Assembly (NCBI GenBank): GCA_023897205.1
Contig: JAHWDD010000003.1
Coordinates: 2,483,665-2,547,664, forward strand
DNA from: Exophiala sp. HKRS030
Taxonomy: Eukaryota > Ascomycota > Eurotiomycetes > Chaetothyriales > Herpotrichiellaceae
Direction: 5' to 3'
DNA length: 64,000 nucleotides
The notes beneath the pieces were generated by a model. The model was not told the origin of the DNA and ran no database searches. It saw only the letters and a program-made list of their open reading frames with translations. Of the stretch, positions 32,585 to 57,061 are shown one piece after another. Numbering within the stretch: the first letter of the stretch is position 1; the number at the start of each line of letters is the position of its first letter. The translations under genes and the position numbers were made by a program.

Positions 32585-34443
32585 TCACACCCCAGAGTCA
32601 ATCAATTCAATCTGGCCTGTGGCCACTATGGCCTTCCAGTCCTTGCACACCTGATAGGTGTTATCTGGGATAGGCAGGTTCTTGATCTTGTCCGGCTGTT
32701 CGAGGACGTCCACAGTCAATCCAGTAGCTGCATGCCAAACTAGGTGACAGTGAAAGGCCCACGAACCAGGATTATCACCATCGGCTTGCCACACCAGATA
32801 TCCATTGGCTGGCACGTTCTGCACGTCTCTTCGTTGCGGATTCTCTGGTCGCACAATGGTTTTGCCGTCCCAGGTTCCCGTTCCGACCGCCAAGATATAC
32901 ATATTGTGACCGTGGAAGTGCATTGGATGAGGTGAAGGAGACTGGTTGTTCACGATGAATCGGTATGAAGCGGCTGAACCAGTGTTGATGACATTTCTCT
33001 CAGATGGAAATGTATTGTTCCCGGATTTGGCTTGGAGCAAAGACGGTTGGCCAAGATCCGCGCGGAAGGACGAGTCATTCATCTGCCAAAGCCAAACGGC
33101 TGATGCATTTTGGCGAACGGTCATATTTAAAGTGTAAGTCGTCTCCGGGGCTCCCGGCGCTATAGGATATAGCGGTATGGTCCTTCCAAGCGGATCATTG
33201 TCACATCCTGCACTATAACTCAAGGCCAACGATTTTGGCGCAGTCCTCAAATCTGCCTCTTCGTAGTATAGGCCAGCCAAAGCAAATGGTTGCCTACTGG
33301 TTGTGCATGTCGCATTGCTCCGAATCCAATATATCCCTCGTGGATCAGTGAGTCCTTGAACGACAACGTCTGTTCTTTGACCAACGCCAAGAGTGACTAC
33401 GTCGGTTGTATAAGGCTGTTGTTCTGTGAGCGACGTGCAAAATTATTCTAGGTCACTTGTCCTTACCTTGACCGCCACAAAATCATTCTCAATCACGGTC
33501 ATGGTGTGACCATCAATAGAAAACTGTTGGGTTGCATCAGCGCCGCTATTGATTAGTCGTAGGCGGTGACGCCTCCCTGCCTGAAATTTAAACTTTGATA
33601 GACCAGCATTATTAAAACATCTGACAGTCTTGTTGAGGGCAGTAGAGCAATCAAAGTTCATCTTGCCATTGATCAGATTATTATCACTGGTCGGCTTTGG
33701 TGGTGGAAGACCGGGACGAGCAGCTACTACATCCTTGACCATGGTGCGGGAGCTGACATGATAATAGTCAGAGAGCATAATTGGCCCTAGATCAATATCG
33801 TAGTCTTTCTCGTTTGGTCCATAAACGACGATGGGGCCCACAACACCATCAGCGTATTGAGAGGAATAATGAGCGTGATACCAAGTTGTACCGAAAAGTT
33901 CAGCTCGAAATTTGTATGTGAAGGATTTCTGCGGTGCGATAGGACATTGTGTAAATCCTCGAAAAGTCAGCATCCGAGATATCGAAGATTATGTTCGACA
34001 TTACCAGGCGTTCCGTCCATCCATTGGTTTTGATGTTGGAGAAAGCCATGCCAATGTATCGATGTACCTTCAAGTGGAGAAGATATGTTGTTGGTTACTT
34101 TAACGACGATTGTGTCACCCCAATTAGCTTCTATGGTTGGACCCGGATATTGTCCGTTGACCAGAACTAGGTTTCGTTCATATCCGTCCGGATACAATAT
34201 TCCTCGAGAAATAACAAAGTCGTAGTTTCGAACAACCCCAGTCTCTGGAGCCTGGTTGTATGGGTTAGTATTTGTGCAGTTGCGTGTGCTCCAGGGAAAA
34301 CCGTCAGGAAGAGGATTGTTAAGTAGGAATCTGGGTAGAATAGGGGCCGAAACGGTGCCGAGGAGGCTTGGTCCGTTGGTGACAATTTGATCAAGAGTGT
34401 TTGCGAGGGACAAGCCTGCAGCAACGAGAGAAAAGACACCCAT
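32585..34443 (-). CDS. Multicopper oxidase 1 (ascomycete laccase-like), secreted
   Basis: Three exons (34443-34005, 33957-33467, 33415-32585; introns 47 and 51 nt), 586 residues. The second acceptor is placed at CAACAG so that Val-Lys is followed by Pro-Tyr-Thr-Thr-Asp-Val, the family order. A hydrophobic N-terminus suggests secretion. All four copper-binding blocks are present: HWHGF with a downstream Asp-Gly, WYHAHYSSQYADG, HPMHFHGHNMY and WAFHCHLVWHAATGL. The residue ten positions after the type 1 Cys is Leu, which in laccases is the axial position and favours a moderate to high redox potential. Substrates of ascomycete enzymes include phenols, melanin precursors and metals; none can be chosen here. 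A second, divergent multicopper oxidase lies at 55037-57061. Confidence 0.93.
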
Positions 34444-35257
34444 GGTGAATACTTATGTAAACTTCCGATACATTGGTTGAGAAATCAAAGGCGCAACTGA
34501 TTAAGATCTGATATAGCTTTCAAATTGGAAGCATATTGTAGAAAGCATGGCAAAACAACAGCGTCAGGAATGCTCTCCATTTCTTTCTCATTTGTGTTTT
34601 GCCGGAATTTTCGTCGTCGATCACTCACCTTGCTTCATTTTTGATGGCGGAGATTATGAGGGAGGTCGAGAGATCTGAGACATTTTCATGGGGAACTCCG
34701 GCAAGGAGGAATTCAACCCCTGTGCCCAAAATTGGACTGCATATCCAGACGGATGATCCTAAGCGCTCTGCTGGAAAAGTGTTGTGATGCTACAGAGTCA
34801 ACATGGTTGCAACAAGATGACGGTCCTCGCCCAAGGGAACAAAGAGCAAACCCCACGATATCCGCTCTGTCGCTTCATGCTAAGTAAATTTTGTTTCACA
34901 AGACGTGGCTAGAGTCGATATCGATCAAGGTCGCTCGACTATGATCCTCAAGATATTCTCTATCTTGTGGTTGCTTGTAAGAACGGTGGGTAGGTTTTGG
35001 TGATGTACCCTTGACCGTCGAGGTTCGATAGGGGTCGTTCGAATTGACTACAGAGCAGGGACTGCTGACGTCATTCCTAGTCCTGGGCTTCCGCAAGAAC
35101 TTGGGTCGGTCTCCCGTAAAATCATGAACTTGCCGTCTCCTAGAAACGACGACTCTGCACAGCATTCGAATCCCTCCCAAGACGAAAATCAGGACGATCC
35201 TCGTCCATAGCGTTGTACGCAATGCTTCAATAACATCAAGTTCGCGACAAATAGACA
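34444..35257. other. Divergent promoter region, 0.81 kb
   Basis: Between the starts of multicopper oxidase 1 (minus) and the PTEN homologue (plus). A minus-strand open frame at 34896-35351 overlaps the PTEN start and has no motif. Confidence 0.5.
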
Positions 35258-41982: not shown

Positions 41983-44206
41983 TCAAGAATTCATTGTCTG
42001 TTCGTAATAGGTATCATCTGCTGAAGGGTAGAAAGTGTCCATAGTCGTATCCTCATCTTCCTCCGCATGATGTTGCAACATTGGAAAAGATAGTCCTTTG
42101 CTATCAATTGAATCTGCTGCTTTCAAGAGCGCACCTACAGCCGACTCTAAGATACCACTGGCGATCTCTAAGAATTCCGCACTTTTGTTCGAAACTCGTA
42201 ATGTCCACCGATATTCTTGTAACCTTCGTTGATAGAATTCGGCCTCTTCTTGTGTGACTGAGGTCACAAAACACAACCCCGCAAATGTACCGATGAGGGC
42301 GAAGTTGAACTTTGAGGCAAAATACCAGAAGGATTGAAGATGTTCTGGTTTGAGTCTGTTGAAGAAGTCCATGGCACTGATCAACCGTGCTTTTGCGGCT
42401 GATCGACAGATCTGAATCATGTACGGGTCTGTGTTGTGGTTCAATGAACGTATCACCCGTCTGTGAAGAGTGATTTCCGTCGCAAAGTATGCTAGGTGTA
42501 GATAGCCCACCGAACTCAACTTGCCAACTCTGGTTGCATCCATGCGTAATGATTCAGGCATATCAGCGTACCATGAACGGAGTTTTAATTGTATGGGTTT
42601 TGCTCTCTCTAGGATTGCTTTGGTTGTGTCGTAAGAGTTCTTGACCTCACTTTCCGCCTTGAGGGAATACAATGCCTCCAAAACTTCCGAAAGCATTTTA
42701 GTGAGTGTGATCATGGCGCTAAACAATGTTCGACCTTTTTCGACTTCAGTGCTTCCTTCCTCACCGTCCTCGTCCGCGGCACTTTCTGGGAAATCACTAC
42801 TGATCACAGGTTGAACGGCCCAATTGGTCATAGATATGTGAGGAGGTCGTCCATAGATGAGAGCAGACCACGTGTCTTGCATAAACAACGCCCAGGCCAG
42901 TCTTTTGCGTAGACCTCTTTCCCAAGCCGGGACTCGCCAATTGGAACAATCAAGATGTAAACCTAGATCCTGACCAATGGCAACGAGCTGGGAAGTCAAT
43001 TGCCATCCTTGATTGCTATTGGGTCTTTGGAGGAGTAGAAGGCCAGCTTGCACCGTCGATAGCTTGGCACGGTATGAAACGTCCTGTAGGGTTCGATAAG
43101 CAATATCCTCGAGCTCGGCGACATCGGGTTTATTCAGTTTGGCAAGTTCGCTGCTGTACGACCACCAATTTAAGGCTAAGATGTATACCGCAGCAAGCAA
43201 TGGCGGTGAAAATTCTCGATGAATCCTTGCATATTTCTCGAGGTAGACTTTCTTGTGAAGGATTGGGAAACTGGGATGAACAATCCTGAAATATAGACGA
43301 ATGAGAGCCTCGCCGTGAGGTGCGACTATCCTCTCGATGTTATCGAGCTCCTCTACTTCACGGAAGTGATTCGGGGAATCGGCGTCCGCGTATTGATGGA
43401 AGAACTCGTTGGGTCCTACCTTGCGAAATGATCCTTGGTCCGCAGGACTTTCACCCTTAATGTCGTCGTACAGTCGGAGGTCTAGAAGAGCAAAGTCGTG
43501 TTCATCGGTAGGGCCGATATATTTTGCGTATCGATGATTTTGTAAGCTGGCCATGGTCAGACCATGAGGAAAATTGAGGTAAGGCATGATAAGGAATAAG
43601 ATGAGTCCAACATACCCAAGAGTCTTCTTCAACAAAGATTCACCCTGCAGGTTAGCATAATCATCGATAACAGGACCAGTACGAAGAGAATCAGCGGATT
43701 GCCTTCGCGGGGCATGCCCATTCCCATCGGAGCCTCTGTTATCTAGTTAGCTTGGTGCTTGATGATAGGGAATGGGGCGGACAGGTGTGGGCGGGAAAGG
43801 CTCACGATCTCCTCTGCCGAGCTAACGAAGTAGCCGACCCCATAGTGGTATCAGTGGTGGAATTCTGGTTCGTTGGTTTGCGTCGCCTCGGAGCTGCATC
43901 TTCAACAAAGGTACAAGATTGTTTGTGAAATTGACACATTACACATGAAGCGGCATCTAGCTCCATGACGCAGCGACTCTTTCGACGTCGACACTGTCAT
44001 TCCATGATCAGCAAATGTTCCACCGCCTGGTCATTTAGCGGGAAAAGCTGGAGGGGCAGGATTTACCGCATCGCAAGGCCTGTCGGGGCGTTGACTTGGG
44101 TTGGGGGTACCCGAGAGTTTGATAGGGACATGTCGCCCAGACTCCCAGACCTGGAACCTGGGTGAAGAGCTTCTGGAGTAGGATCGGCTTGAAAAGCACG
44201 CGACAT
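41983..44206 (-). CDS. Zn2Cys6 regulator, TamA/Dal81-like (probable one-base break near 44085-44107)
   Basis: Four exons (44206-44067, 43993-43806, 43735-43616, 43546-41983; introns 73, 70, 69 nt), about 670 residues. The zinc cluster spans the first intron: Pro-Cys-Asp-Ala, then Cys-Arg-Arg-Arg-Lys-Ser-Arg-Cys, Cys-Val-Met-Cys and a final Cys, with C-x2-C-x6-C-x8-C-x2-C-x6-C spacing. After a linker come the blocks KYIGPTDEHD, IVAPHGEALIRLYFRIVHPSFPI and SPPLLAAVYILALNWW, which I associate with the TamA/Dal81 family of nitrogen co-regulators; the Fungal_trans domain follows. In yeast, Dal81 is needed for allophanate-induced genes. The first exon reads MSRAFQADPTPEAL in frame from 44206 but reaches the zinc cluster in a different frame. 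One added base in the G4 at 44085-44088 or G5 at 44103-44107 fixes this. Same strand as the enzyme gene upstream. Confidence 0.85.
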
Positions 44207-44892
44207 GGTCAAGGTCATTGTTTATTACGGGGTAATCAGCAAGAGGCGTGCTTTATTGGCAATGAAAATTGCAGCATTATCAGTCAACGTCTTGTTGCTT
44301 TTGTGCCTGAAGATTGTGTAAAAAGGAAGGCGTCTGGATAAGCTCGTAGGCCTTGGTAGGCTGTTATGGAGCCCTGAGTGATTGTCGGAGGTCAGGTATC
44401 AGTGGTTATCGGGATGATGGGCCTGGACGGGCATGCAGATTGACAGATCTCGCCCTGGGCCAGTGTGCTGATTCAAAAAATGGATCTCGGGTTCGTAATA
44501 GGGCCAAAGTCGTGGGCACCCCAGGCGCCAGTAGCAATTGATTGAGTAACAAATAGCACCCTTGGCTTGATGAGAGGTTAGTGTTTCTTGGGCAGAGATA
44601 AGAAATCAGACGTTGTCATTGGTGGTGGGGGATGGGGTGGGATTGGGCTGAAGATTCCACCAACCACACCGACCAAATGCCAACGATATCACCAATTGCT
44701 GAAACCTTTCGATTGATAAAAGCCACAGATGTGTGAAACTGGCATTGCAAATGCCAAATACCTTTCATGAGGTCTCTATCGCCTCGAACGCTATGCATAC
44801 TCAAATTACAATGCACCGCCAGATACCGTTGGGATGTTGACTCACTGATCCACTGTCCAGGTGTGGTAATCCTGGACTACCAGGACCCACGA
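44207..44892. other. Spacer between enzyme and regulator genes, 0.69 kb
   Basis: 3' flank of the two-domain hydrolase and promoter of the TamA/Dal81-like gene. No gene seen. Confidence 0.5.
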
Positions 44893-47248
44893 TCAGTTCT
44901 TTTGCGTCATTGCATCTTGGAACGCCCCGGCGATCTTCAGAACCTCCGCGTCAGTGCATCTCGCACCCAAGAACGTGATACTAAACGGCAATTGCGGTCC
45001 GTCTACCTCATCTTCATAAGAGTACATCCCAGCTGGCGTCGCAACTGCACATAGGTCAAGCACATTTCCAAAGTGTGTAAAGGTGCCCAACTTGGCGTTC
45101 AATTTGATCGGGTCGGCCTGCATGGCTTCAATTGTCGGGTGTTCCGGTGCTGTGGGCACTACCAGCACATCGATCCCCGTTTCAGCCGCCGCGGCAAATT
45201 GTGATGTAGCTTGTCGCGTGTACAATGCACGAGCCTGAAGGTCGCGGAATACATGCACTGCAGAGCTATCGCGTGATACGACTTGTTGGAAGAGCTCCAA
45301 AATGACTGGATGCAGATGTGGCGTGTTCTTCTCCAGGAAATCATCGGGCAGGCTGGCAAGACGTTCCGACACGAATGTTCCTGCATAGAGAAGATCTCCT
45401 CCTTTCTGAAATGGGTTCCAATCGATCGTCGTCAATACACCTCCCATGTCTTGTAGATTTTGCACGGCCTCATTGAAGAGTTGTCGGTATTTCGGAGAAC
45501 AGATCTCCAGCATTTCTGGAGGAGGAATCCCGAATCGAAAGGCATCTCGTTGTGTTCCTAGTGAATTTACGTGCCGTTCAGGTGGGAATGTGTCCCTTGC
45601 ATATCGATCATTTGCGTCGAATTTCTCGGCTACTTGCCACAGAGTTCTCGCATCGGGGACTGTTCGTGCAGAGAAAGCTATGCAGTCCAGTGACAAGCAT
45701 GCTATTGAGGAACAAGTGGTAGTACGTTAGCAAATCTTCATGACAGAGAGAAGTCCAATGCGTCTTGGGTCTGGGGAACCAGCCTGATCAATTGAAGAAA
45801 TTGACTTACCTGGTGTAACACCTTCGAAAGAGATCAAACCTCTGGTCGGCTTATAACCAACAATTCCGTTGAATCCTGCAGGAACCCGTCCTGATCCCGC
45901 AGTGTCTGTTGCTAAAGAGAAGGTTGCCTAGAAAAAGTAGGCGGGCAAAGTCAGCCACGCTCTTGCCACTGCAACAAATTCGTGGGTCGCTCTTACCAAT
46001 TCAGCACCAACACTGACACAACTTCCACTGCTGCTTCCTCCAGAAATATGCTTGTCGCTAAAAACAGAATGTGTCACCCCATATGGCGATCGACAACCAT
46101 TCAGTCCAGTGGCTAGTTGGTCTAGGTTGACTTTGCCCAAATACACTGCTCCATTCTTGATCACCCGCTCGAACACCGCCGCTGACTTGGTTGCCACAAA
46201 AGCCAAAGGCGGACATGCCGTGGTTGTTTCGACTCCTTTGACATCAATTGAATCTTTGACAGTGAAGGGAACACCAAAGAGAGGAGGCAGCGAGTTTCTA
46301 TCAGGATAGAGCGCCATCAGATCACGCACCGATTCCAACACAGACTCTCTCGACTCTCGTTTAATCCAAACAGCTGGGTCCACCGACTCGTACTTCTCAA
46401 TGCGGTCAAAGAGAGCATTGACGACTTCCAATGGCGACAAGCCCGATCGATAAGAAGCTTGAAGATCGGAAATGCCAAGTTTGCCATCCCAAGTAGGGGT
46501 GTCTGAGGAGGAGTGCTTTCACCACCGGTTGCCTTTTTCCATGGAGACAGCACATCCAACACAGGCTGTAGATCCGCAACAAATCCGAACAGACCTTGCG
46601 ACCAATATATCATGTCCAAAGAAGCTGTTTTGAATTCTGCATTGTAGCCAGCGGTGCTTTGAGTGATACCACAGCATTCAAACCCGCGGTCATTGGCTTC
46701 TCTGATAGTAGTAGAAAAGCAGCATTCTGTAGTAACTCCAGCCACAAGTATATGTGTGATTCCTCGCGCTTTCAGTTTGTGCATGATATCTGTGTTCCAG
46801 AACGAGCCTTTGCCTGGTTTGTCGATAACCACTTCTGACGCCAGGGGTTTTAGCTCATCGACAATGTCATGGCCATATTCCCCCTCACCAGTAAGCGGCC
46901 CATCTCTCCTTTGTCGCCAATGACCTTGAGATGTTGTGTGTTCTCTGGTGCATCAGCTTGCCGGATCAGCTTTGATGACGGACAGTCAGCCAGAGACGGT
47001 ACTTGACCCTCCCTCGTGTGGAAGATTGCCAACCCGGCATCTCGACATGCGTCAAGTAAGTCCTTGGTTGGTTTGATCGAAGCCTGTACGGCCTCAAGAT
47101 TCCCGCCCTGAATCTCACCAAATCCTCCTGCGAGTAAAAAGTCACGTTGCATGTCAATGACCAGGAGCGCCGTTCCCGCGATAGGAAACGAAAAAGGATA
47201 AGGCTTTGCCTCGATGGTGAGGAAGCCTCGTCTTGATTCAACGCCCAT
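44893..47248 (-). CDS. Isochorismatase-fold cysteine hydrolase fused to allophanate-hydrolase-type amidase (two one-base breaks)
   Basis: Exons 47248-45997, 45927-45810, 45701-44893 (introns 69 and 108 nt) give about 726 residues once two breaks are bridged. Residues ~10-215 are a cysteine hydrolase: Asp in [10 protein letters not shown], Lys in [11 protein letters not shown], Cys in [11 protein letters not shown], the family's catalytic triad. Residues ~250-726 are an amidase-signature domain: Lys in PFTVKDSID (about 332), the cis-Ser in GGSSSGS, the nucleophile Ser in [12 protein letters not shown]. Its RSPYG block and SLDCIAF block are typical of allophanate hydrolase (AtzF, Dur1,2). The separate C-terminal domain of AtzF is absent. 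Breaks lie at C5 46880-46884 (inside the first domain) and G4 46496-46499 (in the linker); one added base at each gives one frame. I infer ureide/biuret breakdown. Two separate genes are the alternative, but the first break falls inside a conserved domain and no second start ATG fits. Confidence 0.82.
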
Positions 47249-48148
47249 GTTTGCTAGAGTTTGATGTCTCTGGTGACGCGGATTTGACAAGCTTTCACAG
47301 CAATAAAGGAGGCGTGGTTTTAAAAAGGCCGGCTACGGACCTGGGGTGCTTTTATGCGTTGAGCTTGGTTTGTGTCAAGAACGATGTCACCTGGAGATGT
47401 CCACATATGTAGAGCTCAAGTACGTAAACTCCGGCAATCTCGAATACGAAAGCTCGCCGATGCACTCGCGGCAGCGTTGCTCAAGCGCGAAGTGTTCTCC
47501 ATGCGGGACGTGGTGTTTTGTCGTGTTCAGAGAGCAGTCTACCGATAATTGATAAGGGCGAGGCCAACCAGCCCCAGCCGCTGACCAATGAACCTGTGGT
47601 TTTCTGTATTATCTTACCGTAACATTTCACTCGCCGGCGGCCGCAAGCCCAGGCTTTGCTTGTGGCCGCCGGCGGTACCGTAAAATGCTGTACACCTACT
47701 CCACCTTATCAGCACCTCGCGCCGGCGGCCGAACCTCACCGCCGTCGCCCATATCTCCACCTGCGGCTCTATCAGGGCGAATACGAGAAATCTGACTTTG
47801 ATCAGCCTCTAGGATACCCCAGATTATCAGATCCGGGCCATCAACTGCACATATCAACGAGCCGCCGTCGGTATTGGCGCCAGGCCTAAGTGCCTATCTC
47901 CCTGCATCCTCGTGGCATCCCTGACTATCTCGAATATCTTGCATACCGGCTCGTCTATCTCACCAGCAACCTTCAGCAAGCTCCAGCATCCCAAGTTCAA
48001 TTTACCTATGCCTCGAAACGTATTACTCTCAGCATTCAATATGTCTATATAGATCTGCATTTGCCTCTCTCCTCTTGTTGCATCCATGACTTGTCAACCG
48101 ACTCCATTTGCATTCCGTAATCGGTGAACCCCAGAATATTCATCCAAA
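47249..48148. promoter_or_regulatory. Shared divergent control region, enzyme/permease, with GATA sites and CGG/CCG words
   Basis: The hydrolase and the NCS1 permease start on either side of this 0.9 kb. HGATAR sites (binding pattern of AreA/GATA nitrogen factors) occur at 47543, 47550, 47609, 47706 and 47824, five within 290 bp, with further GATAG-type sites downstream (for example near 47769, 47894, 47925, 47955). The 10-mer GCCGGCGGCC or its complement occurs at 47633-47642, 47664-47673 and 47721-47730; it contains CGG/CCG triplets of the kind contacted by Zn2Cys6 factors. The sites are read directly. Use by GATA and TamA/Dal81-type regulators is inference. Confidence 0.55.
47633..47673. 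repeat. GC-rich inverted repeat (hairpin)
   Basis: Left arm GCCGGCGGCCGCAAGC (47633-47648) and right arm GCTTGTGGCCGCCGGC (47658-47673) are complementary at 15 of 16 positions, with a 9-nt loop. One more C-G pair extends the stem outward. ACCGTAA appears as a direct repeat just outside both arms. It may be a regulatory palindrome; a terminator is less likely because both flanking genes start away from it. Confidence 0.8.
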
Positions 48149-50053
48149 ATGGTCAATCTCTCCGCCGAGCGCTTTTCCCCAAAGCGTCTCTCTCCTTCCA
48201 GGATCAAGGCTAGACTTGAACCACATCTCCACTGGCAGGTGCCTATGGAGAAGGGAGTCTATCAAGATCCAAGATGGTCCAACCCCGATCTCGATCCCAT
48301 CAAACCTGAAGACCGCACCTGGGGCGCTGTGGTAAGTGGATATCCTTTCCAATGGTACTTCGTACTTGTTGCTGATACATTCTAACTAGGACTACTGGGT
48401 ATGTTCCATGCTTTCAACCAACAATGCCTCCTCCTAACGGTGACCTCAGGCGTACTGGGCTAGTGATATGCTTGCACCTCCCCTCACATCAACAGTTTCC
48501 TCAGTCATGAGTTTGGGTTTCACTGCTCGCGAGACTATTCCCATTGTCTTTTGCGGATTCGCAATCTGCTCAGGCGCATTGACATTGACCGGAAAGATGG
48601 GTGCTCGATACTCCATCCCCTTCCCAGTGCTGGTCCGCTCCATGTTCGGAATGTACGGCAGTTACCCAGTCATCGTCCTTCGAGGTAAGCATGATATTGA
48701 ATTACCGGTGGAAATGACCATGCTCACGGAAAAACAGCTTTCGTGGCTGCTATGTGGACTGCTATTCTGTGCGTTCAAGCTGGTGATTTCCTCAACAACT
48801 GTATCACCGCAATCTGGCCCTCATTTGCCAACTTTCCCAATCATCTGCCAGAGAGTGCTGGTATCACTTCAGCAGGATTGCTTTGCTTTGTGAGTGTTCA
48901 AGCATCATTTGGATCGGCTCCAACTAATCACCCTCTTTAGTTCCTCTACTGGATTGGACAGACCATTCTAGCACTCATGCCCATTAAGAAGCTTCGCATC
49001 CTTTTCCTCGTCAAGGGCATTGTCGTACCTCCAACATTCCTAGCTTTGTTCTTGTGGGGTGCCATTGTCACCCACGGTGGTGGCCCACTGGTCACAGGCC
49101 ACGCGGTCATGACCTCGAACTATATGAACACGGCATACTCTGCCCTTACAGCTCTGAACGTCATCATCGGCCTTTTCAGCAGCATGGCCGTCAATTTCCC
49201 CGATTTCGCTCGCTTCTCAAAGAACAACCTCGGCGGATACAATCAGTTCTTCGCCCTTCCCATCATTGGAACTTTTGGTGCTTTGTGCCCCATCTTCGTC
49301 ACCTCTGCGCACAGTTACCTTCATGGAGGAGAATTCCTGTGGTACATGCCAGCCATTTTCGCCCAATTCGACTCACGGGCGGCGAAATTCTTTGCTTCCG
49401 CCAGCTTCATGCTCGCCATCATCGGCAACCAGATTGCTGCTGGAACATATCCCTTCTCCAACGATATCTCCGGACTGTCTCCTAAATACTTGAACATTTT
49501 CCGATCGACAGTCATCATCTCTGTATTCTGTGTCGTCTCAAATCCATGGCAAATCATCAGAAACGCCAGTGGCCTCTTGGCTTTCCTCTCAGGCTACAGC
49601 ATGTTCATGGGAGCCGTGTGTGGCGTCATGTGCACTCAATACTACATCATCCTCAAGAAGAAGCTCAACATCCACGAGCTGTACAACGGACATGGCATCT
49701 ACGTCTACTGGCACGGGATTAACTGGAGAGCCTTCGCAGCATTCCTAGTCGCCGTGGGTCCATTGCTGCCCGGTTTCTCCAAGAGTATCGACCACAACTT
49801 GAACGTCGGAGGAGCGTGGAAGATTTACACCTTCTCGTGCATCTACGGATTCGCCACTAGTAGCTTCACATACTTCATCATCTGCAAGTACATCTCGGAT
49901 GTCGGCGTGGCCAAGATCGACGAGGCCGTGTACCCGCCATCGAAGCCGCAGACCGCCGATGTCGAGGTTGGAATCCCCGAGTCCGAGGAAGGCTCGTTCG
50001 AGGAGAAGACCGGCCAAGTCGAGGTCAAAGTCGGACCCAAGAATTTGGAATAA
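48149..50053 (+). CDS. NCS1 nucleobase/allantoin-type permease
   Basis: Five exons: 48149-48331, 48390-48398, 48450-48684, 48738-48889, 48941-50053, 563 residues. The second exon is only nine bases (Asp-Tyr-Trp) and completes the family block Trp-Gly-x-Val-Asp-Tyr-Trp-Ala-Tyr-Trp. Twelve membrane helices are expected. Other blocks are GKMGARYSIPFPVLVRSMFGMYG, an FAR-type PDFARF (after NFPDFARF) and SNPWQI. Plant and fungal relatives carry uracil, allantoin, uridine, cytosine/purines or thiamine (Fur4, Dal4, Fui1, Fcy2, Thi7). The sequence flavour is Fur/Dal4-like. It is divergent from the ureide-type hydrolase and shares its control region, so it probably imports that enzyme's substrate or a precursor. 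Frame intact. Confidence 0.93.
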
Positions 50054-50443: not shown

Positions 50444-51595
50444 TCAATAATAATCCTTGGTCTTTCTCGTAACCGCCTCATACTCGGAATAAGTAGACCG
50501 ATCATCGTCGCGCCCATCGGAACGATGACTGTGATGGTGATGATGACGTCTCTTTCGTTCCTGCTGCTCCGGATACAGCGGCCTGGCCTCTTCATAGTCG
50601 TATTGCCGCATTGTCTGCTCGGTGTATTCGTGGCGTTCGTCGTCGTAGTCGTCACCAGCGAGCCGCGGGTCGCTGCGGCGCTGTCCATGGCCACCGGTGC
50701 CGCCTCGGGATCTCGATCGCTCGCCGTGCGTTCGTTTCCTGCGCTCGTAATACGTCGTGTCTTCATAAATGTCATCGTCGTCATTGTCCCGTCCATCTCT
50801 GTGCTTGTGCAAATATCGCCCTGAGAGATGTGCCTCGGCGCCAGGCCGTTCGTGCCGGCTCTCACTGGCATCGTGTCGTTCGATCTGGTCCTGGTAAAAG
50901 CCGACGCTCTGGCCGCGCCGCCGAGTCCATTCTTCCGGTGGCGAGTCGTTACGTCCTCTCATTGAACTGCGGATTCGTGTCGGCGCTATCAGTGGCTCTT
51001 CTGGCACGATCTCCGGTTGTCGGTCGCGCCGTGCGTAGCGGGAATCACTGACGATGTCTTCCATGACTTGCACGTCGCGGTAGTCGGCGTTGCTGACGCC
51101 TCGAGTCCGCCCAGCTGCTCGAGGGCTGTCGTACATGATGATCTCGTTGCGTGTGGACTGGGACGGTCCCTCGTCGTAGTACCGCTGCTTTGGTTCGTAG
51201 CGTCGATCTCGATCGTCGTAGCCTCGTGTCATGCCAGTATCGACGACATAGCTTCCATCAGGTCGCCGCTCGGGCCTGAGGACCTCGAATTCCGAGCGTG
51301 GATTGTTAGGACCAATCACCAATGCATTTGACCGCTTGACGTATGCGTCCGAGTTCCTGTCTCGGCCGATTTCGTACTGTATTTTGGTCAAAGTACGAGT
51401 ATCACGTTCTCGGTCTTGAATTTGATATCCTCTGCGTTCGTCGCGAGGGTCTCGTGAGTATGATCTGTCATAGCCATAGTCCCGTTCATAGTCCGGTTGT
51501 CGGCGGGCTGGTCGGGAAGATCCATAGTCTTCGGCCCCGCGTTCGCGATCCTCATAGACGACTTTGTAGTTGCGATCATCCACACGAGAGGACAT
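50444..51595 (-). CDS. Arg/Asp/Tyr-rich low-complexity protein, function unknown
   Basis: Single exon, 383 residues, intact frame. More than a third of the residues are Arg, Asp or Glu, with regularly spaced Tyr (Asp-Tyr, Arg-Tyr pairs), several Arg-Ser-Arg stretches and a run of five His near the C-terminus. No folded domain, signal peptide or membrane helix is seen. A more ordered block around residues 65-125 (TRTLTKIQYEIGRD, ALVIGPNNP, FEVLRPERRPDGSYVVDTG) looks conserved and includes short beta-like segments. Such composition is typical of RNA-binding or condensate-forming nuclear proteins, but that is only an analogy. The long open frames on the opposite strand are a by-product of the biased codons. 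Confidence 0.75.
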   Translation of the reverse strand: MSSRVDDRNYKVVYEDRERGAEDYGSSRPARRQPDYERDYGYDRSYSRDPRDERRGYQIQDRERDTRTLTKIQYEIGRDRNSDAYVKRSNALVIGPNNPRSEFEVLRPERRPDGSYVVDTGMTRGYDDRDRRYEPKQRYYDEGPSQSTRNEIIMYDSPRAAGRTRGVSNADYRDVQVMEDIVSDSRYARRDRQPEIVPEEPLIAPTRIRSSMRGRNDSPPEEWTRRRGQSVGFYQDQIERHDASESRHERPGAEAHLSGRYLHKHRDGRDNDDDDIYEDTTYYERRKRTHGERSRSRGGTGGHGQRRSDPRLAGDDYDDERHEYTEQTMRQYDYEEARPLYPEQQERKRRHHHHHSHRSDGRDDDRSTYSEYEAVTRKTKDYY

Positions 51596-52337
51596 GATAG
51601 TAGAATCTGCGTGGTATATTCATCTATGGAGTGGCTCACGCGGGTAGGTGCCAGCCCGATCATCGGTCAACAGAGTTTTTTGCAGAACGTCGTACCACCT
51701 TTTCGCACGGTGAGGCTGGCGGTTCGTTCTCGTTGCCCAGCCTTTTTCCTTTTTCTCACATGTTAGACATGGGGGCCGCGGAACGGAAGAATGATATCCC
51801 ATGAATACAAACCGATTTGCTTATTGCAACTGATTGACATCACACTACACGAGAGGCTATCACTGTATGAATGTATGAATATAAAAATAGTTTATTGGGA
51901 CAACTTTGAATGGATGTATGCGAAATTATGGTGCACTGATATAAGGACATGGAGAGTGCGTAATCTCGTATCTCGGGCTCAGCCGTAGCTGCCCGCTCTG
52001 TGCCGATAGTAATTCTACCCTAGGGCCAGAGGCCATTGATATCAAACAGCCTTCCAAGTATAGTCCCAAGCTGTGCTCTGAAAAATTTGCCACCCACATA
52101 TGTGATACGATAGCATTCTGGGTATTCTCGCTTCCTGAAAGCTTCAATACCTCCTCACAGGACCACTATTCGACCATAAAACCGACCGGGCGGGGTCGCG
52201 ATGCTTTCTCATTCTACCCAGCACAACAGCATGTTCTATGTCCAAGATTTCAGTATCATGGCCCCTCTGTGCATAGACATGGGAGCATCGTCGTCCCTTA
52301 GACTCCAAGTAAGGCAGGCTAAGAGGTCAGCCACTTT
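51596..52337. other. Intergenic, 0.74 kb
   Basis: Promoter of the Arg/Asp-rich gene and 3' flank of the arrestin-like gene. No feature supported. Confidence 0.5.
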
Positions 52338-55036: not shown

Positions 55037-57061
55037 TCAGACCTCGTCCCGCTTTCTTCGTTCGTCCGCCCTTGTCGAAGCTTGATGACGATCCTCGTGC
55101 CAGAAACCGTGATATCCCCGCTTTTGATGGCGGTCGCTATGCGATGTATGACCCTTCATATACTCGACCATCCGCTTAGCGAGATCTCTCTTCCTGAGAC
55201 CGTCATCAATTTCAACGTGAGGATTGGCCAATTCCCAAGCCTTGTAAGCGTCACATGTGCCCAGGATGTTGTCAGGGATCTTGATCTGGGCGAGCTCTGC
55301 AGGTCTTTCAAGCAGCATAATGCTCATTCCGGCCGACAAGTGCCATGCAATATGACAGTGGAAAGGCCAGAGCCCAGGATTATCCTGTGTATATTGAAGG
55401 ACAATGTAGTTTGTCGTGCCGGTCGTTTGATTGGCGCCTCCGTGCGCCATTTGAACATCACGGCGTTGAGGGTTGGCTGGATTCACCACTACACCATCCC
55501 AAAGTCCAGTACCTTCGGCTAGAACTTGAAAGTCATGACCGTGAATGTGGAGTGGGTGAGGCGCAGGAAGGGTATTGATAATGACAAGGCGGACAGTATG
55601 GTTGGTTCCGGTTAGATAAACGTTACGCTGGGGCGGCAGCCAGCGACCTGCAACAGCTTCGAATAAGTTGGGCACATCTAGATCTCCAAGATAGGTAATG
55701 TCGTTGAATCGCCAGTGAAATATGCCTTGCTCATCCGGACCGCCACCGATGGTGAGAGTTATGGTAGTATCGGGTTCTGCCGCAGGAATGGCATATTGTG
55801 GGACAGTTAGTGAAAGGGATCATTTTGGCAGGTTGGATTCGCGGGAGATTGCTTTCCCTGACTTGTTGGTGGGATAGATGGGTCAGTGCCTTTGTAGTAG
55901 ATGATACCTCGACCATCGGGGCCATTTGAATCTCCACACGGGCTGTTGAATGCACGAAGCCAGAAGGAACCACCTCCAGCGTTTGTGGTAAAGACAACGT
56001 CGGTTCTCTGTCCCACTCCCAGGGTGACAAAGTCAGTTTGATAGGGTTGGACAGGAACCATATCGTTGGCAATGACCGTGAAGGTATGACCATCAAGAGA
56101 AATGGTTTCGAAACTAGCGGCTCCAGTGTTGATAAAACGTGCGCGATATGTCTTACCCGGTTCAACTTCCCAAGAAGCATAGGGATTCACGGTACATAAT
56201 GCGCCTGTTGTAACATTTGCACATGGGTATTGTCCCTTGCCATTCACAAGATTCGAGTCGGAGAGTGGGCGGAAGGGAGGACCGACAGTCGGCTGCAATA
56301 CCAAGTCAACAATGTGCTCGTAGCTATCATGATACCAATCTGTGAAGAGAATTGGACCCAGGTCCTCATCGTATGGGACTTCATTAGGGCCATGAATAAT
56401 CATGGGACCGTGTGCCCCATCGGCATACTGGGCCGAGTAATGAGCATGATACCAGCTGGAGCCATGTTCATCGGCACGAAACCTATATGTGAGGTTCCCG
56501 CCGGGTACGATCGGGCATTGTGAGACGCTAGCAACACCATCCATATAAGGTGTTCCAGGTTGATTGAGCCCGTGCCAGTGTAACATGGTGAGGTCGTCTG
56601 GCCCGGTGATTCCATTATGTACATTGACCTCGATCCTGCATTGTTTATTAGGAAGAAGCCGGGGAGTTCGGACACAAGACTCACCAATCACCCCAATTGG
56701 CTTCGATGAGTGGGCCCGGAAATTGGCCATTTATGACGATTAGCGATTGTTGAACACCATCAGGCGCAAAGGTTGCACGAGAGACAGTGAAGTCGTAATA
56801 TCTAGTGACACCTGGGAGCCATTAAGATCCACGCACATTGCTTATCTATAAGAACCCTCACCAGTATCAGGATAGTCGGCGGGATGTGTGTTCGAGGCTT
56901 TTTTGTCACCCCATGGACAGTCGCCACCCTACAGCAAATCTTAGTATAAGAAAGCAGGCATTTCACAATGGATGACATACCCCGACCCATTTTCCAAGAC
57001 CGGCAGCAGCACTGTGAACAAAAACAGTGCCCAGTAGGGCAGAAACCAGAGCTGCCCTCAT
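55037..57061 (-). CDS. Multicopper oxidase 2 (laccase-like), secreted (one-base break at 55816-55818)
   Basis: Four exons (57061-56981, 56928-56862, 56811-56685, 56635-55037; introns 52, 50, 49 nt), about 624 residues after one repair. Signal peptide at residues 1-21. Copper blocks: LHWHGLNQ with Tyr-Met-Asp-Gly, WYHAHYSAQYADG, HPLHIHGHDF and WPFHCHIAWHLSAGM. The residue ten after the type 1 Cys is Met, unlike Leu in the first enzyme, which suggests a lower redox potential. The tail after the last copper block has many His, Arg and Lys residues. Between QNDP and the next strand the frame shifts; one added base in the G3 run at 55816-55818 (coding CCC) gives Leu-Ser-Leu-Thr-Val-Pro-Gln-Tyr and joins the halves. 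This is the shortest run involved, so a true mutation is slightly more possible here. Confidence 0.88.

What the first reader, a model, noticed from the sequence alone, without database searches (positions are those of the whole stretch)
41983..50053. Candidate ureide/biuret scavenging cluster: regulator, fused two-step hydrolase, divergent permease
Seen: a TamA/Dal81-like Zn2Cys6 regulator, a protein joining an isochorismatase-fold cysteine hydrolase (Asp/Lys/Cys triad visible) to an amidase with allophanate-hydrolase blocks (RSPYG, Lys/Ser/Ser triad), and a divergent NCS1 permease. Known: biuret hydrolase is an isochorismatase-family enzyme that yields allophanate, which allophanate hydrolase then cleaves; yeast Dal81 is needed for allophanate-induced genes. 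Inference: one fungal protein could carry both steps, fed by the adjacent permease. Ureidoacrylate (RutB-like) or another ureide is an alternative first substrate.
Basis: partly seen in the sequence, partly recalled or inferred. Interest (0 to 1): 0.78.

Follow-up and report, generated by a model that had tools for sequence, protein, structure and literature searches.

The report
Fungal fused ureide–allophanate hydrolase gene
Many filamentous fungi appear to carry one protein that breaks down small urea-like nitrogen compounds in two linked steps, often encoded near a nitrogen-regulator gene; the copy in this stretch of DNA looks broken, while a second copy in the same genome is whole.

Summary
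Two corrections. (1) The window's fusion is read in three frames; it has two frame breaks and the regulator one. The fusion itself is real: 120 of 120 listed relatives carry both domains and a second, unbroken fusion lies beside a second regulator in this genome. (2) Domain 1 is nearer to triuret hydrolase TrtA (49% identity) than to biuret hydrolase BiuH (41-42%), and has Ser in 121 of 121 rows where TrtA and BiuH have a substrate-binding Gln. Domain 2 keeps all five allophanate-hydrolase residues checked. The regulator link is conserved (17 of 120 fusion rows share a contig with a regulator row); the permease link is not seen at the second copy. Best reading: a two-step ureide-to-ammonia enzyme with allophanate as the inner intermediate; biuret the likeliest substrate, triuret or another ureide open. 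Against biuret: two other genes here are closer to BiuH. New variant of a known kind; I found no paper describing the fusion in the open-access library searched.

The parts
41983..44218 (-). Dal81/TamA-like Zn2Cys6 regulator gene; start at 44218 is a candidate; frame change near 44.11 kb; 73-nt intron 44066-43994
44893..47248 (-). Fusion gene: isochorismatase-like domain then allophanate-hydrolase-type amidase; read in three frames in this assembly
46881..47248 (-). First part of the isochorismatase-like domain (frame 1); holds catalytic Asp of DMQRDF; ends at the first frame break
46500..46880 (-). Second part of the isochorismatase-like domain (frame 2); holds catalytic Lys (DKPGKG) and Cys (TTECC) and the SQG motif; runs into the inter-domain linker, where the second frame break lies
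44893..46518 (-). Allophanate-hydrolase-type amidase domain (frame 3), introns 45996-45928 (69 nt) and 45809-45702 (108 nt); no C-terminal AH domain
48149..50053 (+). NCS1 permease, divergent from the fusion; exons 48149-48331, 48390-48398, 48450-48684, 48738-48889, 48941-50053; 563 aa; linkage not conserved at the second copy
50447..51619 (-). Arg/Asp-rich protein with no Pfam match; its 42% paralog also flanks the second fusion copy, so it marks the duplicated block; function unknown

Best explanation
The gene is a two-step, one-protein ureide scavenger. SHOWN by sequence: an N-terminal isochorismatase-like cysteine hydrolase of the triuret/biuret hydrolase class with its Asp-Lys-Cys triad, joined to an allophanate-hydrolase-type amidase with its Lys-Ser-Ser triad, conserved as one protein across many Pezizomycotina, and linked to a Dal81/TamA-like regulator gene. 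INFERRED: domain 1 removes a terminal amide nitrogen from a short linear ureide, leaving allophanate, which domain 2 splits to ammonia and CO2-level products, so that all nitrogen is recovered and unstable allophanate is not lost. Biuret is the substrate that yields allophanate in one step and is my first choice (about 0.45); triuret about 0.2; another ureide about 0.25; a different role about 0.1. The linked regulator probably controls the gene or a wider ureide response. In this genome the work is probably done by the unbroken second copy.
Against: No activity data. Ser replaces the substrate-binding Gln (Q202 of TrtA, Q215 of BiuH) in 121 of 121 rows; a Gln (105) or Glu (16) follows one place later, and Q-to-E at that site costs TrtA over 95% of its triuret activity and raises BiuH's KM over 25-fold. 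The genome's closest BiuH relatives are two other genes (52% and 51%; the fusion scores 84 and 71 bits), although both have Arg where BiuH needs Lys145. Domain 1 scores below NCBIfam's BiuH cut-off (216 of 370) and domain 2 below the allophanate hydrolase cut-off (437 of 511; the C-terminal domain is missing). The window copy is broken. A. nidulans has a TamA but no stand-alone amidase of this kind was found there in 2011 (PMC3073912; TamA recalled), so the regulator's main job is not this gene alone.
Confidence: 0.6

Rival explanations
1. Triuret hydrolase joined to allophanate hydrolase: domain 1 turns triuret into carboxybiuret; this loses CO2 to give biuret, which domain 1 or another enzyme turns to allophanate for domain 2, or domain 2 acts on carboxybiuret itself.
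For: TrtA is the closest solved relative (49% identity); F35, E160 and Y187 are TrtA-type in 121, 121 and 120 of 121 rows; tree places the fungal domain apart from BiuH. The TrtA paper states trtA homologs occur in some fungi (passage).
Against: N41, Q202 and I205, all named as important for TrtA, are replaced in the fungal domain (Gly in 116, Ser in 121, Leu in 121 of 121). TrtA's product carboxybiuret is not the substrate of allophanate hydrolase, and domain 2 resembles AtzF, not the carboxybiuret enzyme AtzE (437 against 132 bits).
Confidence: 0.2
2. A different linear ureide, or guanylurea, is the substrate of domain 1; the exchanged Ser-Gln/Glu loop reads a new far end of the molecule.
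For: Ser at the far-end position in 121 of 121 rows against Gln in 80 of 80 bacterial loci, TrtA and BiuH; long branch (1.43) to the fungal clade; guanylurea hydrolase is another member of the isochorismatase-like family (PMC9800807 passages).
Against: The near-end pocket is kept, including K132 and E72; guanylurea hydrolysis does not give allophanate directly.
Confidence: 0.25
3. Domain 2 serves the stand-alone urea carboxylase: it removes the allophanate that urea carboxylase makes, and domain 1 does something unrelated or regulatory.
For: The genome has two urea-carboxylase-like genes without an amidase domain and no other near AH except the C1 gene; in Dothideomycetes a stand-alone amidase and urea carboxylase often occur together (PMC3073912 section 6).
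Against: In that paper the two genes are never near each other in Dothideomycetes and Mycosphaerella graminicola has the amidase without urea carboxylase; one of the two carboxylases here lies beside a PxpA-like gene, so it may serve 5-oxoproline; a urease match is present; domain 1 keeps its catalytic triad in 121 of 121 rows.
Confidence: 0.1
4. RutB-like ureidoacrylate hydrolase.
For: Same superfamily; RutB is among the hits.
Against: RutB scores 85 bits against 198 for TrtA and 102 of a cut-off of 378; no Rut partner genes were looked for.
Confidence: 0.03
5. The window copy is a dead or dying duplicate, so nothing at these coordinates is made.
For: Three frame breaks in two neighbouring genes while a second pair, whose fusion is unbroken, exists.
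Against: 0 private changes at otherwise invariant columns; all breaks at or beside short G/C runs, as assembly errors often are; no reads or transcripts seen.
Confidence: 0.5

Closest known systems
TrtA triuret hydrolase (Herbaspirillum sp. BH-1; PDB 6xix, 6xje, 6xj4)
   Same: 49% identity to domain 1; triad, F35, E72, K132, E160, Y187 kept
   Different: Stand-alone bacterial enzyme; N41, Q202, I205 exchanged in fungi; fungal form fused to allophanate hydrolase
BiuH biuret hydrolase (Rhizobium leguminosarum 3841; PDB 6azo)
   Same: Same fold family and near-end pocket; 41% identity; makes allophanate, the substrate of domain 2's family
   Different: Tyr47, Tyr53, Asp173, Gln215 of BiuH are Phe, Gly, Glu, Ser in the fungal domain
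AtzF allophanate hydrolase amidase domain (Pseudomonas sp. ADP; PDB 4cp8)
   Different: No C-terminal AH domain; preceded by a ureide hydrolase domain
Dur1,2 urea amidolyase (yeasts; K. lactis 5i8i)
   Same: Allophanate hydrolase as part of a larger fused enzyme
   Different: Partner is urea carboxylase, not an isochorismatase-like hydrolase; 256 bits
Stand-alone fungal amidase 'A' of Strope et al. 2011 (PMC3073912)
   Same: Reported in Dothideomycetes including Stagonospora nodorum and Cochliobolus, groups represented here by fusions P0089 and P0080; probably the same proteins (inference)
   Different: The held main text has no mention of isochorismatase

Membership tests
Isochorismatase-like hydrolases | PF00857 match and Asp-Lys-Cys triad | tested here: met
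   Window pieces 85 and 34 bits, cut-off 27; P0001 118.5 bits; triad 121 of 121
BiuH biuret hydrolase | NCBIfam equivalog NF050097 cut-off 370 bits | tested here: not met
   216, 219 and 224 bits for P0001, P0020, P0115
BiuH biuret hydrolase | Gln215 from the neighbouring subunit | tested here: not met
   Ser in 121 of 121; Gln or Glu one place later; an alignment shift of one cannot be excluded
BiuH biuret hydrolase | Hydrolyses biuret to allophanate | not testable with these tools
   Needs an assay
TrtA triuret hydrolase | TrtA consensus F35, N41, E160, Y187, Q202, I205 | tested here: not met
   F35, E160, Y187 kept; N41, Q202, I205 not
TrtA triuret hydrolase | Groups with TrtA rather than BiuH | tested here: inconclusive
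   BiuH rows are one side of a fully supported branch and the fungal rows lie outside it; branches that join the fungal rows to TrtA-type rows have SH-aLRT 91-94, root set by me on BiuH, quick tree without bootstrap, bacterial rows chosen for similarity to the fungal domain
Allophanate hydrolase | Amidase-signature Lys, cis-Ser, Ser and the Tyr/Arg pair in LLY..G..V.ER | tested here: met
   121 of 121; same in AtzF, GbAH and 26 bacterial AH; that the Tyr/Arg pair binds allophanate is recalled (paper not held)
Allophanate hydrolase | NCBIfam TIGR02713 cut-off 511 bits, which includes the C-terminal domain | tested here: not met
   437 bits over 2-413 of 563 positions; C-terminal domain absent
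RutB | TIGR03614 cut-off 378 bits | tested here: not met
   102 bits
Dal81/TamA regulators | Closest named relatives and domain make-up | tested here: inconclusive
   Names DAL81/OTam and PF04082, but a second Dal81-like pair at 48-49% exists in the genome, so strict orthology is not settled
NCS1 permeases | PF02133 match | tested here: met
   147.6 and 36.7 bits for two exons, cut-off 23.5; TIGR00800 146 bits for the last exon, below 353

The most novel reading that the evidence does not exclude
Fungi have a self-contained allophanate module: a fused enzyme that both makes and destroys allophanate from a ureide not yet known to be a fungal metabolite, read by a new Ser-Gln/Glu specificity loop, next to the Dal81/TamA-type regulator that yeast needs to respond to allophanate. 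The enzyme would set the inducer level that its linked regulator reads, an older arrangement than the yeast urea amidolyase circuit.
Probability: 0.15. Interest if true: 0.75.

Novelty: new variant of a known kind. Interest (0 to 1): 0.55.

Why it matters
It would give many filamentous fungi a route to nitrogen from biuret- or triuret-type compounds (fertiliser impurities and products of uric acid oxidation), in one protein. It would also explain what the stand-alone allophanate-hydrolase-type amidase of Dothideomycetes does, and gives a testable link between Dal81/TamA-type regulators and allophanate outside the yeasts. The fixed exchange of the far-end Gln is a natural experiment on how this enzyme family reads biuret against triuret.

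Tried and rejected
Rejected or weakened: RutB-like function. BiuH as a simple label for domain 1. A shared origin with the actinobacterial AH+IHL gene pair: the fungal AH domain groups with this genome's own stand-alone AH on C1 (99, midpoint root, long branch) and not with the 13 actinobacterial partners, so the pairing looks convergent. The frame-break control is weak: one search scored only 11 of 183 candidates and did not reach the window's own aldehyde dehydrogenase; stops inside matches may be introns.

Led nowhere: papers PMC5961051, PMC6952224 and PMC3568674 are not held. The structure listing covered only the amidase half of the model (residues 255-723), so domain 1 was not tested by fold. 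Searches for fungal growth on biuret gave nothing usable. The search with domain 1 alone returned mostly pieces that look like exons of the same fungal genes, so nearest true stand-alone relatives were taken instead. In one search, 18 contig lengths were shared; I dropped one (2,427 bases, P0093/P0305), too short to hold both genes. Of the 17 kept, 16 pairs carry the same species name and one differs (P0005/P0247). Cladophialophora carrionii and Exophiala xenobiotica are in both lists without a shared contig length; their rows are multi-strain clusters.
Full report
WHAT IS THERE. The window lies in an unnamed 59.8-Mb fungal genome (G000, contig C3). Between 41983 and 50053 there are three genes: a Zn2Cys6 regulator (minus), a two-domain hydrolase (minus), and a divergent permease (plus). 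The permease is open over five exons, 563 aa, with PF02133 matches. The hydrolase has an isochorismatase-like part and an amidase part, in that order. Read strictly, it is in three frames: one change inside the isochorismatase-like part near 46881, one in the linker near 46.50 kb; the regulator has one near 44.11 kb. Each lies at or beside a short run of G or C.

IS THE FUSION REAL. Yes. All 120 listed hits of 7873 have both Pfam domains in one protein of 680-825 aa at 61-79% identity; named ones are ascomycetes of several classes, closest in Chaetothyriales. The same genome has a second copy at C3:1264209-1266619 that reads through the joint, 726 aa, 74% identical to the window copy. Beside it, same strand and about 0.7 kb downstream, lies a second regulator, and upstream a 42% paralog of the protein at 50447-51619. 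So the block is duplicated; the permease is not in the second block.

BROKEN GENE OR BAD ASSEMBLY. Families searched the same way give mostly long open frames (six long genes, one with a stop inside its match; 14 of 18 loci in one long stretch, one with a stop inside; 11 of 183 candidates scored, 10 in one stretch). Three breaks in about 4 kb of coding sequence is therefore an excess. But the window copy has no private change at otherwise invariant columns among 708. I leave this open.

DOMAIN 1. Against solved structures: TrtA (6xix, listed as 'Cysteine hydrolase'; identity as TrtA from PMC7948467 passages) 198 bits, 6xjm 170, BiuH 6azo 167, RutB 85. Pairwise identity of the P0001 domain: 49% to TrtA, 42% and 41% to the two BiuH. 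In 121 rows (120 hits and the conceptual window protein): D24, F29, F35, E72, K129, T158, E160, C162 kept in 121; K132 in 119; Y187 in 120; position N41 is Gly in 116; A134 is Ser in 90, Ala in 26, Thr in 5; position Q202 is Ser in 121, followed by Gln (105) or Glu (16); position I205 is Leu in 121. The papers say F35, E160 and Y187 go with triuret use and that Q202/Q215, reaching in from the other subunit, holds the far end of the substrate (PMC7948467 and PMC5806882, passages and named sections). So the near end of the pocket is that of a biuret/triuret enzyme, the far end is new. In a quick tree the 19 fungal rows form one clade (100) on a long branch (1.43) outside the BiuH clade; their joining to TrtA-type rows has SH-aLRT 91-94.

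WHY THE TWO BELONG TOGETHER. Among 80 bacterial loci with a domain-1 relative, 26 have an AH-type amidase (over 200 bits) in the fetched stretch: 13 directly upstream, 42-165 bases away, all in Actinomycetota and without the C-terminal domain; 3 directly downstream; 10 further off. The fungal AH domain does not group with these partners. So the pairing seems to have arisen more than once.

THE REGULATOR. Relatives of the window regulator are named DAL81 or OTam by some sources. In Capronia coronata the two have consecutive tags; in Chaenotheca the tags are two apart on a 25,848-base contig. In yeast, allophanate induces the allantoin genes and Dal81 with Dal82 is needed (PMC4589623 passages). 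Strict orthology is not settled, since a second Dal81-like pair at 48-49% exists.

RESULTS AGAINST THE BIURET READING. The best BiuH relatives in the genome are two separate genes, 52% and 51% (200 and 161 bits), while the fusion gives 84 and 71 bits. Both have Arg in place of Lys145, a change that made BiuH 'effectively inactive', so they may not be biuret hydrolases either. The far-end Gln is gone from the fusion.

METABOLIC SETTING. The genome has a cyanuric-acid-hydrolase-like gene (205 bits against 146 for barbiturase) close to and divergent from a stand-alone AH-type amidase, two urea-carboxylase-like genes without amidase, and urease. Cyanuric acid hydrolase yields carboxybiuret and then biuret (PMC7948467), so a source of biuret inside the cell is plausible (inference).

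NOVELTY. Searches in the open-access library found no paper that describes this fusion. The TrtA paper says trtA homologs occur in some fungi, citing a 2018 paper and a thesis that I could not see. Strope et al. 2011 (sections 6 and 8 and passages) reported a stand-alone amidase in Dothideomycetes, probably this protein, and the held text does not mention isochorismatase.

VERDICT. A real, widespread fused enzyme; the two-step ureide-to-ammonia reading is well supported by anatomy, the exact substrate is open, the regulator link is good, the permease link is not, and the window copy itself may not be functional.

Noticed in passing
G000 C1:4587598-4588716 (minus) and C1:4589526-4590968 (plus); L022/L023: A cyanuric-acid-hydrolase-like gene lies close to and divergent from a stand-alone allophanate-hydrolase-type amidase, followed by a 2OG-Fe(II) oxygenase gene: a possible fungal cyanuric acid cluster.
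   Followed up: partly
G000, whole genome: Many conserved genes occur in pairs, often on the same contig. The window regulator is 92% identical to that of Exophiala mesophila (P0241), the second one 92% to E. xenobiotica (P0255): a duplicated or hybrid genome.
   Followed up: partly
G000 C3:285889-286416 (L026) and C6:2877197-2877658 (L027): Two BiuH-like stand-alone genes (51-52%) with Arg at the position of BiuH Lys145; substrate unclear.
   Followed up: partly
G000 C2:1614616 (L029) and C2:2460258 (L028): Two urea-carboxylase-like proteins without an amidase domain, one beside a PxpA-like gene; may be 5-oxoproline rather than urea enzymes.
   Followed up: partly
window 32588-34452 and 55040-56730: Multicopper oxidase genes on both sides of the cluster.
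   Followed up: no
L030, L034, L035, L043, L050, L056, L058, L060, L062, L067, L084, L092, L096: Actinobacterial gene pair: short allophanate hydrolase directly followed by a TrtA-type hydrolase, with no second BiuH-type gene seen in the fetched stretch.
   Followed up: partly
window 47.6-47.75 kb: G/C-rich inverted-looking stretch (CGGCGGCCGCAAGC...GCTTGTGGCCGCCGG) in the intergenic region between fusion and permease.
   Followed up: no
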